35,319 nucleotides of DNA from Clostridiales bacterium (GTDB lineage: Bacteria; Bacillota; Sulfobacillia; Sulfobacillales; Sulfobacillaceae). A program made the position numbers and the translations under genes. The stretch lies in NCBI GenBank assembly GCA_027365485.1, contig DAHXNH010000061.1:1-35319 (forward strand). Direction: 5' to 3'. Positions within the stretch are counted from its first letter, which is position 1. The number at the start of each line of letters is the position of its first letter. A model generated the notes under the pieces. It had not been told where the DNA came from. It searched no databases and saw only the letters and a list, made by a program, of their open reading frames with translations. Positions 3,103 through 20,056 of this stretch are shown here, piece by piece.

Positions 3103-3340
3103 TGGCTATCGCCCTCCTTTCGACGGGATCATCAATGCTAGGGAAGGCGTCAAAGAAGAGCCGATGAAAGACTTGACGATTCCAGAACCATCATACCCAG
3201 ATTGTTGGAAAAACGAAAGAATCGTCCCTTGTCCGCGAAGATAAGATTGCCTTCGGGGAATCCGGGTGAGTTTGTGACTGCCAAGGAAGGATTTACTTGA
3301 AAAAAACAGAATAGATAGAGGATTGAACGAAGCATCCGGC

Positions 3341-3414
3341 CGCATCGTTAGGTGTGATGGCACCGAGATGCCCATCGTTAGGTTCAGTGCCTGAGACGCC
3401 TAGATACCGATGCG
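3341..3414. repeat. Dyad with internal direct repeat
   Basis: CGCATCG (3341-3347) is matched by its exact inverse CGATGCG (3408-3414). Inside lie two direct copies of CATCGTTAGGT (3343-3353 and 3373-3383) and a small GGCA/TGCC hairpin between them. There is no gene here. It could be a protein-binding site, part of an untranslated leader, or a remnant of a duplication. The function is unknown. Confidence 0.5.
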
Positions 3415-3427
3415 ACCTCAGGGAAAA

Positions 3428-3510
3428 GCAAGGAAGCAAGGAAGCAAGGAAGCAAGGAAGCAAGGAAGCAAGGAAGAAAGTAAAGAAAGTAAAGAAAGTA
3501 AAGAAAGAAG
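3428..3510. repeat. Purine-rich tandem repeat (6 x 8 nt, then 3 x 9 nt)
   Basis: Six perfect head-to-tail copies of GCAAGGAA fill 3428-3475. Three perfect copies of GAAAGTAAA follow at 3476-3502, then a degenerate purine tail. The array is almost pure A/G on the plus strand. Perfect copies suggest recent slippage-driven expansion, so the number may differ between strains. Units of 8 nt would shift any reading frame passing through, or change promoter spacing. It lies between the ABC operon and the stop-free segment before the histidine kinase. Confidence 0.95.
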
Positions 3511-4335
3511 ACGGTCGGCGGCAGTCCAGGGGGCACCGTGTACGACGAAAGGAGCATGGCCATGGCAGGCTTGATGCGTGAACCTCCCCAAAAGTTTATC
3601 ATACCCGATGCGGGAAAAAGGCGTCAGCAGTCTTTAGAGCGGGGTGGTGCGGGTGCTGTTGATCCCGGGCTATGGTCTCGACTGGTCCCCGGGTCGCGCA
3701 TTCGATATCGCCGGGTCCGATTACCTCATGGGCTCGATATTGCCCCGTTTAGGGGAGAACGTGTGATCAGGTGCATCGGAGTCGCTGCGATGGTGCAGTT
3801 CGAACCGAAGCCTCAACCCGGAGGGGCAGCAAGCCTGCCGACGCTCTTTTTGGATGGCGAGAGACGGCCACATAACCGCCGCTTGCATCCGTTAGCGAAT
3901 AATAATGACCTCGAGGGGATTTGCGCTGGTCGGCAGGATAGGTTCGAACCAGGGCAACTGTCGCTCGTATCCGCCCCAGCGGCGGGACGTAAACCTGACC
4001 GACGGACCTTTGCCCGTAGAGACGGTCGTTTGCCGAAGCCGTTTGCGCCCAGACTACCGATGGGTTGCGGCCAGAGGGTGATGAAGGAGTCGGGGACGAA
4101 AGTCGTGGCCCATAGGAGCCGGATTAGGGTTTTAGAAAGGCCCCAACTGTCCCTCCCATCCCTCGCCGATCGAGGGCGGGCAAGCCGCCGGGACCGATGT
4201 TCGCTCAGGCCGGGGACGAATGGATATGGGGACGGGATGATCCCGAGGGCGCTAGACCGAGACAAGACAGGAACAAGATGGGCAGAGCCTATGTGGCTAA
4301 CCTTCCCGGGCCGAAAGGACGTGGATTTTCCAATT
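3511..4335 (+). other. Long stop-free segment, not convincingly coding; possible structured RNA
   Basis: One plus-strand frame is open to 4353, with a good AAAGGAG site 7 nt before an ATG at 3562, which would give 263 residues. The translation is very rich in Arg, Pro and Gly, uses many AGG/AGA codons and has no recognisable domain. In a 50-codon sample GC by codon position is about 68/56/52 percent, unlike neighbouring genes where the second position is lowest. As RNA, several stems can be drawn: CCCC/GGGG at 3743-3755, GGCAG/CTGCC at 3825-3839, a bulged 9-bp helix GTCGG-CAGG with CCTG-A-CCGAC (3929-3937 with 3994-4003), CCCTCG/CGAGGG at 4160-4176, CGGGA/TCCCG at 4233-4245, and a GAC-GAAA-GTC loop at 4095-4104. 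Short stems of this size are expected by chance in GC-rich DNA, so the RNA reading is only a hypothesis. It matches no RNA family I can name. Confidence 0.35.
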
Positions 4336-4336
4336 G

Positions 4337-5623
4337 ATGGACGGATCTTGTAAAATGGATTATACATTTAATCTTCTTCCTGGCATTACTTTGACCAACG
4401 CGTTTTTGGTGTCGAATCAAGTCCTGGATCGATTGTCGATGCGTTGTTGGCTCTTTGACATGCAGGGAATCTTGATTTGGTTGAATTCCAGTGCCAAGCG
4501 TGAACCGATTGCACTGAGTACCTTGACGGCGTTGGCAGAGGCTAAAAGAAACCACGGCAACACCGCTGCGGTCTTAGACGATGGCAGCGTGGTCAGATGG
4601 ACGACGATTCGCGATCTCCAAGGCACGGTGATTGGTTGGTTAGCGCTTTCGGACCGCGTAGAGACGAAGCGGGAAGGTTCGCCTATCATGCAAACCGGGG
4701 TAGCCGTATGCCAGGAAGGAACGTTTGTCATGGCCACTGCCGCCGCGTGTACGCTGATGCGCCAAGATTTGGTAGGCATGGCTTGGGATGATCTGCCTGG
4801 GCTACCCCGATGGAGGAATTTAGTGGAAGGGCCGGTCGAACAATGGCTCGTGGATCCGAGGACCGGGCAGCACTGGCATCTCCTGCGGGCCGGGTTTACG
4901 GTCATGATCGAATCTACTCCATGGCCAATGGCCGATGAGCGACCGCCGGTCTGGTCGACTACCGCCGAGATGGTGCACGAAATCCGAAACCCATTGACGG
5001 CGTTGCGGGGCTTTATCGAGTTGGCTCTTAAGGCCCCGGAGGCCAGGGATTATCCCGAATTCTTGCAAAAAGCCCTGGTCCAAGTGGAACGATTGGACGC
5101 CATCACCGCCGAGGTGCTGCTGGTGGCTAAGCCCTTGATGCCAAAGCTCTGCGCAATTACCTTGGTCGAGGCAATCACCGCCGCGTGGGCGATGATTGAC
5201 CCGGGTTTAAGAGGACACATTGTGCTGGATGTGGATGAGAATGTAGGGATGGTCGAAGCCGACCCTGATTTGTTCCACCAAATCTTAATCAACATCTTAA
5301 AAAACGCCGTGGAGGCGATGAAAGGTCAGGGTCGAATTCGTATTGGCAGTGATCAGAGGCAAGACGTGACCGTGGTTCGGGTTCAAGACGATGGACCTGG
5401 GATGTCGGACCAGGTAATGACCAGGATATTTGAACGCAGCCAAACCACCAAAGCGGGGGGATCCGGGTTGGGGTTGGTGATTGTGCAGCGATTAATGCGC
5501 GAGCATAGCGGGCAAGTGCGGGTGACTAGTAGTCCATCAGGCACGCTCGTGGAATTGGTGTTCCCGACAACCGGCTCCGCGACCATGCCAACGTCCTCGC
5601 CCCAAACGCCAAGGGTGCCTTAA
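4337..5623 (+). CDS. Sensor histidine kinase (HisKA + HATPase_c), orphan
   Basis: This protein of about 428 residues has no clear transmembrane segment and is probably a soluble sensor kinase. The first 200 residues form an unassigned, possibly PAS-like input region. The H-box MVHEIRNPLTALRG follows, with the phosphoacceptor His at about residue 214. The ATPase domain shows the N-box (NILKNAVEAM), G1 (DDGPGMSD) and G2 (GSGLGL). No response regulator lies nearby, as is common for sporulation phosphorelay kinases (KinA/B-like), but that role is only inferred. The start is uncertain: TTG at 4334, ATG at 4337 and ATG at 4355 are in frame after an upstream stop, and none has a good ribosome-binding site. 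It occupies the place upstream of holA often held by comEC in related genomes. Confidence 0.9.
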   Translation: MDGSCKMDYTFNLLPGITLTNAFLVSNQVLDRLSMRCWLFDMQGILIWLNSSAKREPIALSTLTALAEAKRNHGNTAAVLDDGSVVRWTTIRDLQGTVIGWLALSDRVETKREGSPIMQTGVAVCQEGTFVMATAAACTLMRQDLVGMAWDDLPGLPRWRNLVEGPVEQWLVDPRTGQHWHLLRAGFTVMIESTPWPMADERPPVWSTTAEMVHEIRNPLTALRGFIELALKAPEARDYPEFLQKALVQVERLDAITAEVLLVAKPLMPKLCAITLVEAITAAWAMIDPGLRGHIVLDVDENVGMVEADPDLFHQILINILKNAVEAMKGQGRIRIGSDQRQDVTVVRVQDDGPGMSDQVMTRIFERSQTTKAGGSGLGLVIVQRLMREHSGQVRVTSSPSGTLVELVFPTTGSATMPTSSPQTPRVP

Positions 5624-5652
5624 AGCAATCAAACTTAGAAAGGAGAATGCTG

Positions 5653-17094: not shown

Positions 17095-18119
17095 TCAAAC
17101 ATCCAGGCTCACCTCCGCCCCAAGGGAAACTACCTTGGGGTCTTTTTTTTCTGAGTTTGTCGCTGATTGTCGTCGGAGCAGGGACTCCGTCGACTGGAGT
17201 CAGCCGGCCATCGGGGTTGGTAGCGCTTTATGGCCAACCCCAAGCCCATGCGGAAAACGCATTTGTGGCCCAATTTGGCGTTCGTGGAGGCAGGCCCATC
17301 AGGGTCCCTTTGGCGCTCGGCCGCTTGGGCCTGGTGGGTCAAATCAATGCCTTGGTGAGCCGAGGCTCGTCTTGGCAAGCGACCGTGGGGACGAAGGTGG
17401 TGTGGGGACAGAACCATCGAATTGTGGGCCAAATGAAGGTTCCAGACGGGGCCACGGTGACGTCGCTGGGATGGTCGGGTTCCTCGTTGTTCGGGATTCA
17501 GGCCGATGTGACCGGGGGAAGACTCAAGTTGATGCGGTTTGGCAGTGATCACCGCGATTACCGAGTGGGATCGGTTCCCGCGGGCATTGCGACGATATGG
17601 CAAGGTAGGGATGGCCCTTATGTGAGTGTGATTGATCCCAATCTCGTCGTATGGTATGGCGATGACGGAGCCAAGACGTCAAAAGTATTGAGCGGGGTCG
17701 CGGCCTCATTTTGGATGGGGTATCGAGGGAACCAGGGACTAGTCGCCTACAGTCAAGGCCAAAGTCGCTTTGGCTGGGCCTGGCTCAGTCTAGATCGCAT
17801 CCGGCGCATCACCACCACCAATCCCCGGCGGGCAGTGCTCGGGGTGACCGACTCCTCGAAGATATGGGGATTTGGTGCTTTTGGCGTGGTTCCGCTGGAA
17901 CATGACCGTTTCGATTTTCAGCGCATAAGCGCTTGGCCGGGGCCGATGCCGACCACGCTCAGCGTAGTCCAAAACCAAGGGCGATGGTGTCTTTTTCTTG
18001 GCGGAGCGGGCCAAGGCTATTGGTTTGATACCGCCACCGGAAGATTTGGTCCATCGTTTCGTCTCGGGCTGCCAACCGGCACCGTCATTCGCCAAATCGC
18101 CTTGTTAACGACCGGTTAG
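17091..18119 (+). CDS. Predicted secreted protein, possibly beta-propeller-like, function unknown
   Basis: I do not recognise this family. The 342-residue product has a basic start and a hydrophobic segment at about 16-30 (WGLFFLSLSLIVVGA) that looks like a signal peptide or anchor. The rest is rich in Gly, Val, Trp and Arg with recurring beta-strand-like stretches (VVWGQNHRIVGQM, VTSLGWSGSSLFGIQADV, DPNLVVWYGDDG), which could suggest a repeated beta or propeller fold. GTG overlaps the yqeY stop as GTGA. An intrinsic terminator falls inside codons about 10-20, so expression from the rpsU promoter should be attenuated. There is no better start beyond the terminator that keeps the hydrophobic segment. 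It ends with a 4-nt convergent overlap with the next minus-strand gene. Confidence 0.72.
   Translation: MIKHPGSPPPQGKLPWGLFFLSLSLIVVGAGTPSTGVSRPSGLVALYGQPQAHAENAFVAQFGVRGGRPIRVPLALGRLGLVGQINALVSRGSSWQATVGTKVVWGQNHRIVGQMKVPDGATVTSLGWSGSSLFGIQADVTGGRLKLMRFGSDHRDYRVGSVPAGIATIWQGRDGPYVSVIDPNLVVWYGDDGAKTSKVLSGVAASFWMGYRGNQGLVAYSQGQSRFGWAWLSLDRIRRITTTNPRRAVLGVTDSSKIWGFGAFGVVPLEHDRFDFQRISAWPGPMPTTLSVVQNQGRWCLFLGGAGQGYWFDTATGRFGPSFRLGLPTGTVIRQIALLTTG
17118..17150 (+). terminator. Intrinsic terminator of rpsU-yqeY, inside the next coding region
   Basis: A perfect 8-bp stem CCCCAAGG/CCTTGGGG with a 7-nt loop GAAACTA is followed by TC and eight T. This is a textbook Rho-independent terminator 23 nt after the yqeY stop. 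It lies within the predicted signal-peptide codons of the downstream gene. Confidence 0.93.
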
Positions 18120-18790
18120 AGCCAGATAGTCGGCGCCGGATCGCCTCGAAATTTCGCCCGTTGCGGAGGGGTTCGGCCAAACCACGGCGGGGCCACGATT
18201 GGTTTCGGCGATGCTCCGCTTAAATCGACTACGCTCAAGGAACGGCCCAAGGCGTCGGCTAAGGTGGAGGCAAAGGGGACATCCAAGGCGCCGTAAAGGT
18301 GCCAATTCGGATGCAAACTGAGAGCCCAATAGGCGGCGTCCCAGCCCCAACTGAGGCCGTCGATCCAGATCCCCTGCCCAGAATCGAGATCGGGCACTAG
18401 GGCGGCGGCATGGCCCAAAGCACTTAAACTCTGACCGGGCAGACGCTGCATCATGATCCTTTGCAGTCCGGCCTCAGCCATTAGCGATTTTAAGCGAAGC
18501 CACTGGCCGGGCTGGTCGGGAATGGGGATTTCGAGATCGTATGCTTCCGAGAAAGTCGCCAGCGATTGCCAACTGGCCCAGCCCCGGACTCCAGGCATCC
18601 GAGTAGTCGACCCCAGCGAGGGCAGCGAGGCTGTCATGGGAAAATCTGTCGCGTCCTCCAGATCATAGAGGACGTGGGCTCGGTTCGATCGAGCCAATCG
18701 GAAGCGCTCGGCTAATATAAGCCTCCACGACGCCTCCATGGGAGCGTCGCTCCATCGGAAAAGCGGCATCCACAACAGGCGAGATTTCAT
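18116..18790 (-). CDS. Hypothetical protein, 224 residues
   Basis: No family is recognised. The product is soluble-looking, rich in Trp, Leu, Ala and Pro. The segment GIWIDGLSWGWDAAYWAL followed by HPNWHLYGALDVPFA faintly resembles the glycine-rich loop and first acidic strand end of a Rossmann methyltransferase, but the motif is too degenerate to name a function. The start is ATG without a clear Shine-Dalgarno; later in-frame Met codons exist. It lies downstream of the radical SAM gene on the same strand across a 354-nt gap. Its stop codon overlaps the stop codon of the convergent secreted-protein gene. The coding call rests on the long frame and protein-like composition. Confidence 0.6.
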   Translation of the reverse strand: MKSRLLWMPLFRWSDAPMEASWRLILAERFRLARSNRAHVLYDLEDATDFPMTASLPSLGSTTRMPGVRGWASWQSLATFSEAYDLEIPIPDQPGQWLRLKSLMAEAGLQRIMMQRLPGQSLSALGHAAALVPDLDSGQGIWIDGLSWGWDAAYWALSLHPNWHLYGALDVPFASTLADALGRSLSVVDLSGASPKPIVAPPWFGRTPPQRAKFRGDPAPTIWL

Positions 18791-18870
18791 CTAGTGGCGC
18801 GGGCGGGGAGCACGCGGGCTGCCTTCAGCCACCCCCTTTCCCGCTTCTCCCTTCTTTGAAATACGCTTGG

Positions 18871-19000
18871 ACTCAGCGCAAGCCCCGAACCTATGCTGTG
18901 AAGCAGTGATTGGGGTTCAGGCTTGCCGTACGACGAGAACCAAAAGCGCCTGCCTTCGCTTCGTGCATGCCCTTGAGCAAAATCGGGGCAAGCTTTTTTT
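18871..19000 (+). ncRNA. Candidate small RNA with its own terminator
   Basis: A compound hairpin at 18878-18926 pairs GCAAGCC with GGCTTGC (7 bp) and GAACC with GGTTC (5 bp), capped by TGCT-GTGA-AGCA, a 4-bp stem with a GNRA tetraloop on the plus strand. About 40 nt later a terminator follows: GC-A-TGCCC pairs with GGGCA-A-GC, then seven T (18994-19000). No plus-strand gene lies between 18119 and this terminator, so it needs its own transcript. I could not find a clear promoter and the 5' end is a guess. It matches no RNA family I know. Confidence 0.4.
18965..19000 (+). terminator. Intrinsic terminator without an upstream plus-strand gene
   Basis: The stem is GC-A-TGCCC / GGGCA-A-GC with one A-A mismatch and a 13-nt loop, followed by TTTTTTT. 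It faces rightward although both flanking genes are on the minus strand. Confidence 0.6.
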
Positions 19001-19144
19001 GGCCTCGGCTGCCCCCGCATTCGCACGGTTTCTACATTAGGGCCCTTTACCAATTGGTCTATGGTCATCGCCTGCAGCCAACCAAGAGAATCTGTGGCGG
19101 ACCGGCTTTCGCGCCTTGGCCACAGTCGTTTCACCTTCCTGCGG

Positions 19145-20056
19145 TTATGGCAAGGACAAGGACGGTTCGATCTCACCTAGGGTTTCGATGACTCCGTCAA
19201 GACCGGCCTCAGCCAATAAAATCTCTGCGTCATCCGACGTAATCGCTCGGAGATTAAGATGCACCGCCACATTGGGCAGCATGGCTTTAATCGCCTTAAG
19301 CGTACGCAAGATTTGATCAAGGCGGGGTCCTGGCACCATGGCCAAACCACTGCCCTCGGGATCGAAACATTGCAATTCAAGGTACTCCAAACCCGCGATC
19401 AGAGTTTGGAGATGATCCAAATGTTTGAGAATGTGTTCGTAATTGGTATGGCCGTCAATCATTAGACCAGCCACGGTTTTAATGCCTGACTGATGGGCCA
19501 CTCGGTGAATTTCTAAAAACCGCTCGACACTGAGACGATATGGGGCCACCTGTTGACGGACAGAGTCAACCAACAATTCGGAGCCACCCGGCCCGATGTG
19601 GTCCATCCCAGCGTCGCGCCACTCCGTCAAGATCTGCCGGGCAGGGCGATTTTCCCGCCGGCACAAATGGTCGATTTCGACCGCAGAGAACGCGTGGACC
19701 GGGAGGCCCGATTGGCGTTTGACCGCCGCGATTAAGCGCGTGAAATAGAGACTGGGCTCACCAAAGCTAAGGCCTGTGACCAATTTAACGAAATCAGCAG
19801 CCGGGCCGTGAGCCAACTCGGCGGTGGCTTGGGCAATTTCCAGCACTGGCGCCGGAGGGCGATTTTTGTTGAGCAGCGCGACTCGGTGAAACCCGCAAAA
19901 ATCGCACCCCGCCCAGCACCCTCGGGTGGCAATGATCTTGACGGCGCGACGTCGAGGCAGGCCCGATTGCCGCGGATACCACGGCACCGGCGGTTCCGAG
20001 TCTCGCAACCAATGTTCGGCTTCGCTTCGAATGAGCTCAAGATTTTGACTGTCCAT
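19145..20056 (-). CDS. Radical SAM protein, MqnC/MqnE/CofH-like
   Basis: The 303-residue protein has the radical SAM cluster motif CWAGCDFC (Cys47, Cys51, Cys54; CxxxCxxC). Later motifs resemble the futalosine-pathway menaquinone enzymes MqnC/MqnE and the F420 enzyme CofH: an IGPGGSELLVDSVRQQVAP segment (family pattern PGxGAEIL...VR), FLEIHRVAHQSGIKTVAGLM (family: WLEVxRxAHxLGxxTTATMM) and a GHTNYEHILKHLDHL-like loop. At 303 residues it is shorter than the roughly 360-390 of those enzymes. It lacks the usual GG(L)HP motif, so the exact reaction is open. The ATG start has no obvious Shine-Dalgarno. It is divergent from yqfC and precedes the 224-residue hypothetical gene. Confidence 0.8.
   Translation of the reverse strand: MDSQNLELIRSEAEHWLRDSEPPVPWYPRQSGLPRRRAVKIIATRGCWAGCDFCGFHRVALLNKNRPPAPVLEIAQATAELAHGPAADFVKLVTGLSFGEPSLYFTRLIAAVKRQSGLPVHAFSAVEIDHLCRRENRPARQILTEWRDAGMDHIGPGGSELLVDSVRQQVAPYRLSVERFLEIHRVAHQSGIKTVAGLMIDGHTNYEHILKHLDHLQTLIAGLEYLELQCFDPEGSGLAMVPGPRLDQILRTLKAIKAMLPNVAVHLNLRAITSDDAEILLAEAGLDGVIETLGEIEPSLSLP

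What the first reader, a model, noticed from the sequence alone, without database searches (positions are those of the whole stretch)
3511..4335. 820-nt stop-free segment with non-coding codon statistics: unrecognised large RNA, or novel protein?
Seen: one frame stays open for about 270 codons although random expectation at this GC is about 30, and an ideal Shine-Dalgarno precedes ATG 3562. Yet the translation is Arg/Pro/Gly-rich, uses many AGG/AGA codons, and its codon-position GC pattern is unlike the neighbours. As RNA it offers many stems, including a bulged 9-bp helix around 3929-4003 and a GAAA loop. Individually these stems are not above chance. Both readings are open: an undescribed structured RNA or a fast-evolving protein.
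Basis: partly seen in the sequence, partly recalled or inferred. Interest (0 to 1): 0.6.

Follow-up and report, generated by a model that had tools for sequence, protein, structure and literature searches.

The report
Decayed remnant of an IscB element
The puzzling open stretch is the worn-out, internally deleted remains of a mobile gene for an RNA-guided DNA-cutting enzyme (IscB), and is neither a new structured RNA nor a new protein.

Summary
The open frame is real (GTG 3538 to stop 4353, 271 codons), but it is neither a new RNA nor a new protein. It is a heavily diverged, internally deleted copy of an IscB gene, the RNA-guided HNH/RuvC nuclease of HEARO/omegaRNA elements. Such elements, intact and broken, are abundant in this bacterial family. 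The frame keeps the IscB start (ATG 3562, Shine-Dalgarno included) and the C-terminal part (3826-4317), in order and in one frame. The middle (RuvC-I/II, HNH) is missing. The relic's 3' end (about 4200-4336) matches intact elements' 3' ends and stops at the start codon of the downstream histidine-kinase gene, where intact copies usually sit. Against six IscBs the frame scores 81.8; the best of 161 other window frames scores 44.7. The RuvC-III His/Asp are replaced and no HEARO RNA is detectable upstream. In the only other genome of the genus searched, a 3' remnant sits at the same place with two in-frame stops, and about 676 bp is gone. Similarity to IscB has faded about equally at all three codon positions, as neutral decay predicts. 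RNA folding is no better than shuffles. One oddity: so decayed a frame should have gathered stops. A second such relic end lies at 18758-18903 (-).

The parts
3538..4353 (+). Open frame of 271 codons: relic of an internally deleted iscB gene
   Evidence: mean local score against 6 IscBs 81.8, other 161 frames of the window mean 31.2, sd 3.6, max 44.7
3548..3564 (+). Shine-Dalgarno AAAGGAG and start ATG 3562, in the place of the iscB start of relatives (GAAGGAG...ATGGC)
   Evidence: read from sequence beside 10 relatives; DNA 3480-3680 against 9 iscB starts z 3.9, 0 of 200 shuffles
3562..3651 (+). Remains of the IscB N-terminus (PLMP region; name recalled and seen in PMC9755519 passages)
   Evidence: frame residues 3-38 align with IscB 6-41; residues 8-45 z 3.5, 0 of 300 shuffles, profile 10 of 5000
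3652..3825 (+). Stretch without clear match; the IscB middle (RuvC-I/II, bridge helix, HNH) is missing
   Evidence: DNA z 0.32; residues 39-96 z 2.1, 13 of 300 shuffles
3826..4317 (+). Remains of the IscB C-terminal third (RuvC-III region to the C-terminus)
   Evidence: residues 97-260: z 17, 0 of 300, profile 0 of 5000; IscB 315-474 aligned with 106-259; DNA of 3850-4200 alone not significant, z 1.05
4200..4336 (+). Remains of the element's 3' end, stopping at the start of the histidine-kinase gene
   Evidence: z 8.4, 0 of 200 shuffles; same bases in the sister z 10.3; one of the two places on top of a blind scan of 1466 tiles
3481..4156 (.). Part missing from the sister species G001 (deletion there; limits by BLAST)
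3426..3507 (.). Tandem arrays (8-base unit x 6.9, 9-base unit x 3.8) lying where the HEARO RNA would be in an intact element
   Evidence: the first array is also in the sister
4334..5623 (+). Histidine-kinase gene directly downstream (ATG 4337 or TTG 4334)
   Evidence: Pfam HisKA and HATPase_c

Best explanation
An IscB-HEARO mobile element once sat directly in front of the start codon of the histidine-kinase gene, before the two genus members held here separated. It lost the middle of its gene (RuvC-I/II, bridge helix, HNH), and its omegaRNA region is no longer recognisable. What remains has decayed without protein-level constraint. The old iscB frame has stayed open here for 271 codons, which gives a long, Arg-rich frame with un-gene-like codon statistics. 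In the sister species a further deletion of about 676 bp removed all but the 3' end. Shown: homology, order, the missing middle, the 3' end at a gene start, decay in the sister. Inferred: insertion before the split, neutrality, absence of function.
For: Protein: score 81.8 against 6 IscBs, other 161 frames max 44.7, reversed IscBs 37.7; first of 5162 profile targets, 10.8 bits against at most 6.4 in 3000 protein shuffles; separate pieces significant and in order. DNA: 3' end z 8.4, the sister's z 10.3, start region z 3.9; a blind scan finds the 3' end here. Context: 35 of 61 genomes have IscB matches at E<=1, 16 of 35 have HEARO at E<=0.001; other copies with the middle missing: L108, L109, L110, L111, L113, L119; 12 of 13 element 3' ends are followed by 4 bases and ATGA, 10 of 13 with a frame of at least 80 codons starting within 12 bases. 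Decay: two stops in the sister, RuvC-III His and Asp replaced, similarity lost evenly over codon positions.
Against: No Pfam, NCBIfam, PHROGs or PDB match for the frame itself; a broader 15-sequence IscB profile does not pick it out. No HEARO trace upstream. DNA of 3850-4200 alone is not significant (z 1.05), and a lepA control for the start test gave z 1.9, 8 of 200. A frame decayed this far should hold several stops (about one change in 30 makes one), yet holds none. The base after the relic's ATG is G, not the A usual in intact copies.
Confidence: 0.88

Rival explanations
1. A miniature IscB-derived protein (N-terminal PLMP region plus C-terminal part, no nuclease) was kept and is still translated in this species, for example as an RNA- or DNA-binding protein.
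For: Frame open for 271 codons despite strong divergence; start and Shine-Dalgarno retained; protein-level similarity exceeds DNA-level similarity in 3850-4200.
Against: Two stops and a large deletion in the sister; 9 of 18 differences at third positions, p 0.11; similarity lost evenly over codon positions; un-gene-like codon statistics.
Confidence: 0.06
2. Chance open frame in non-coding DNA; only the 3' end is an element remnant.
For: Open runs this long occur in about 1% of Markov shuffles (18 and 17 of 2000); DNA of 3850-4200 alone shows nothing.
Against: Residues 97-175 (3826-4062), outside the 3' end, match IscB on their own: z 9.1, 0 of 300 and 0 of 5000 shuffles, and the N-terminus lies in order and in frame.
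Confidence: 0.04
3. Undescribed large structured RNA.
For: GC-rich, many possible stems.
Against: Folds no better than shuffles (z +1.28 and 0.02); no Rfam family; missing from the sister; protein homology explains the stretch.
Confidence: 0.01

Closest known systems
IscB, RNA-guided endonuclease of HEARO/omegaRNA elements (NCBIfam NF040563; PDB OgeuIscB 7xht, 8csz), here the subfamily of L068/L071/L105/L024
   Same: N-terminal and C-terminal sequence in order, Shine-Dalgarno and start, Arg-rich, 3' end at a downstream gene's start codon
   Different: Lacks RuvC-I/II and HNH; RuvC-III His/Asp replaced; no HEARO RNA upstream; about 22% identical in the C-terminal part
Internally deleted IscB copies of the same bacterial family, such as L113 (G031:C64) and L119 (G024:C52)
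   Same: A short N-terminal piece joined to the C-terminal third, 3' end at a gene start
   Different: Much less diverged; L119 still has a weak HEARO match (38 bits)
HEARO RNA (Rfam RF02033)
   Same: Expected directly upstream of an iscB start
   Different: Not detectable in 3120-3620 nor by DNA comparison in 3200-3565; tandem arrays lie there

Membership tests
IscB (functional member) | Match to the curated IscB model (NF040563) or to RRXRR (PF14239) | tested here: not met
   No match for the frame; the relative L068 matches with 418 and 225 bits
IscB (functional member) | RuvC and HNH catalytic parts | tested here: not met
   Middle missing, RuvC-III His/Asp replaced in the alignment (motif naming recalled)
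IscB (functional member) | HEARO/omegaRNA directly upstream | tested here: not met
IscB (descent from) | N-terminal and C-terminal IscB sequence in order in one frame | tested here: met
IscB (descent from) | Element 3' end next to ATGA of a downstream gene | tested here: met
   3' end z 8.4, next to ATG 4337, though followed by G and not A; 12 of 13 other 3' ends have 4 bases and ATGA
Non-autonomous (still mobile) IscB derivative | Several copies with the same deletion junction | tested here: not met
   One place only in the own genome; no comparable copy among 61 genomes apart from the sister's remnant of the same place
Structured RNA | Folding beyond shuffles | tested here: not met
   z +1.28 and 0.02
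Structured RNA | Covariation in the stems | not testable with these tools
   No homologues of most of the segment

The most novel reading that the evidence does not exclude
The frame is a living miniature of IscB that has shed its nuclease and its guide RNA, keeps the two end parts that (recalled) contact the guide RNA and the target-adjacent motif, and has been kept open by selection in this species as a binding protein in front of a two-component kinase gene.
Probability: 0.05. Interest if true: 0.6.

Novelty: new member of a known kind. Interest (0 to 1): 0.17.

Why it matters
It shows that a striking open frame with un-gene-like statistics can be a fossil of an RNA-guided nuclease element too worn for Pfam, NCBIfam, PHROGs or Rfam to recognise, and that comparison with closely related intact copies settles it. 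This family of bacteria is rich in intact, internally deleted and decayed IscB-HEARO copies, a good place to study how these elements die and whether internally deleted copies still move.

Tried and rejected
Repeat or insertion element in the own genome: one place only. Recent insertion in this genome rather than deletion in the sister: rejected, because the sister still holds the last ~180 bp of the relic. Known RNA families: none. tRNA/tmRNA: none. HEARO remains in 3200-3565: not above chance. A broad IscB profile (15 sequences) failed to pick the frame; the narrower subfamily profile did. A DNA profile of whole elements gave only weak hits, of which the sister remnant (E 0.0014) and window 18783-18882 (E 0.0044) were the best (in the larger of its two sets the L107 row was empty through an indexing slip, so that set held 11 of 12 elements). 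A fold of the frame alone was useless (pLDDT 39). Relatives in plasmids and viral contigs: none. Literature: searches (listings seen); of the papers only passages of PMC9755519 were read; Weinberg and others 2009 (HEARO) is not held and is recalled.

Full report
What was checked. The frame exists: GTG 3538 to the stop at 4353, 271 codons. In shuffles of the segment the longest open run averages 128 to 153 codons over six frames, and 271 or more turns up in 3, 18 and 17 of 2000 shuffles depending on the model. The odd codon statistics are real. The RNA reading has nothing behind it: the whole segment folds slightly worse than its shuffles (z +1.28), the highlighted stem region is average (z 0.02), and Rfam shows only chance-level hits.

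The sister species. In G001 (the metagenome-assembled genome FK_Sedi_B_Bin.94 by its contig record) the flanks are 96% identical, but window 3481-4156 is missing. The part that remains, 4157-4353, differs at 18 of 177 sites up to 4333, against 89 of 1287 in the kinase gene and 27 of 966 in the next gene. It carries two stops in the window's frame. Of the 18 differences 9 are at third positions (p 0.11 against one third; the kinase gene with 47 of 89 and the next gene with 20 of 27 are clearly biased). The frame is therefore not conserved between these two species.

The clue. A search of 61 genomes with the frame gave, besides itself and the sister, only weak hits. Several of these covered the same part of the query, residues about 100-260. 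Four of those places carry iscB genes (L024, L027, L028, L032). The protein of L068, which holds the same gene as L028, matches NCBIfam guided_IscB with 418 bits, and three of the places carry a HEARO RNA just upstream.

The tests. A profile of six subfamily members put the frame first among 5162 targets (10.8 bits; best of 3000 protein shuffles 6.4). It aligned IscB 6-41 with frame residues 3-38 and IscB 315-474 with 106-259; the first of these two stretches alone scored -1.6 bits in that profile. Cut into pieces, residues 8-45 score z 3.5, 97-175 z 9.1, 216-260 z 4.0 and 97-260 z 17, while 176-215 (z 0.0) and the middle (z 2.1) do not stand out. Against all 162 stop-to-stop frames of the window with at least 80 codons, this one scores 81.8 and the next 44.7; against reversed IscBs it scores 37.7. 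At the DNA level bases 4200-4345 match the 3' ends of 11 elements with z 8.4, and the same bases of the sister with z 10.3. The start region matches 9 elements with z 3.9. Controls were -0.7, -0.5 and 1.9, the last being a lepA stretch. DNA of 3850-4200 alone is not significant, so in that part the evidence is at protein level only.

Anatomy. The relic has the IscB start with its ribosome-binding site, then a stretch without a match, then the C-terminal third. About 270 residues with RuvC-I/II and HNH are gone. The RuvC-III motif is changed at the His and the Asp (the naming of the motif is recalled). Copies with their middle missing are common among the 20 loci compared (16 new, 4 earlier): L108, L109, L110, L111, L113 and L119. 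The tandem arrays at 3426-3507 lie where HEARO would be, and no HEARO trace was found.

The 3' end. In 12 of 13 the end is followed by four bases and ATGA, and in 10 of 13 a frame of at least 80 codons starts within 12 bases. In the window the end is followed by ATGG, the start of the kinase gene at 4337. The kinase has a paralogue in this genome on G000:C311, 95% identical, and their homology begins at 4346, just after the relic. A blind scan for this 3' end over both strands of the window (1466 tiles) put two places on top: 18758-18903 on the minus strand and this one.

Dead or alive. Between intact IscBs, identity at codon positions 1, 2 and 3 is about 0.8, 0.83 and 0.5. Between the window frame and IscB it is about 0.45, 0.48 and 0.35, over a background of 0.27, 0.25 and 0.26. 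Above background, roughly a third of the similarity survives at each position (my arithmetic from that call). This is what decay blind to codon position would give, though the third position is poorly determined. Against a simple story, about one change in 30 makes a stop, so a frame this decayed should hold several; none is there. A kept miniature protein is the alternative and gets 5-6%.

Context. In the 61 genomes, 35 have an IscB match at E<=1. HEARO is found in 16 of 35 genomes at E<=0.001, in 12 over the cut-off, and in none of 14 control genomes. The window's own genome holds apparently complete iscB frames (G000:C13, open frame 504; G000:C267, 501) and HEAROs over the cut-off (C13, C301).

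Literature. A paper on HEARO nucleases (PMC9755519, passages read) describes them as Arg-rich, says that HEARO ORFs and IscB are one family, names the PLMP part and the C-terminal TAM-interacting part, and reports HEARO RNA hits in 65% of their 5' regions. No paper in the library holds both 'IscB' and 'Sulfobacillus'. That HEARO elements integrate next to ATGA or GTGA is recalled from Weinberg and others 2009, not seen here.

Verdict. A decayed, internally deleted IscB-HEARO relic: explained and of low interest in itself.

Noticed in passing
window 18758-18903 (-): A second remnant of an IscB-element 3' end, ending in CTAG next to the ATGA start of the gene 18116-18790 (-); best of 1466 tiles in a blind scan. 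The frame 18787-19176 (-) over it has no Pfam match.
   Followed up: partly
L068, L071, L105, L108, L109, L110, L113, L115, L119, L120 (3' ends): IscB-HEARO elements of this family end four bases before an ATGA that in 10 of 13 cases opens a frame of at least 80 codons, so they sit directly in front of gene starts, with stop and start overlapping in several. Preference for ATGA is recalled as known.
   Followed up: partly
L108, L109, L110, L111, L113, L119: IscB copies with the middle deleted but both ends kept; possible non-autonomous derivatives.
   Followed up: no
window 3426-3507: Two adjoining purine-rich tandem arrays (units of 8 and 9 bases); the 8-base array is the only place of its 16-base motif in the genome and is kept in the sister with a slightly different length.
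   Followed up: no
window 4346-5647 and L073 (G000:C311): The histidine-kinase gene has a 95% identical paralogue elsewhere in the genome, with limits at 4346 and 5647; the sister has a partly deleted paralogue.
   Followed up: no
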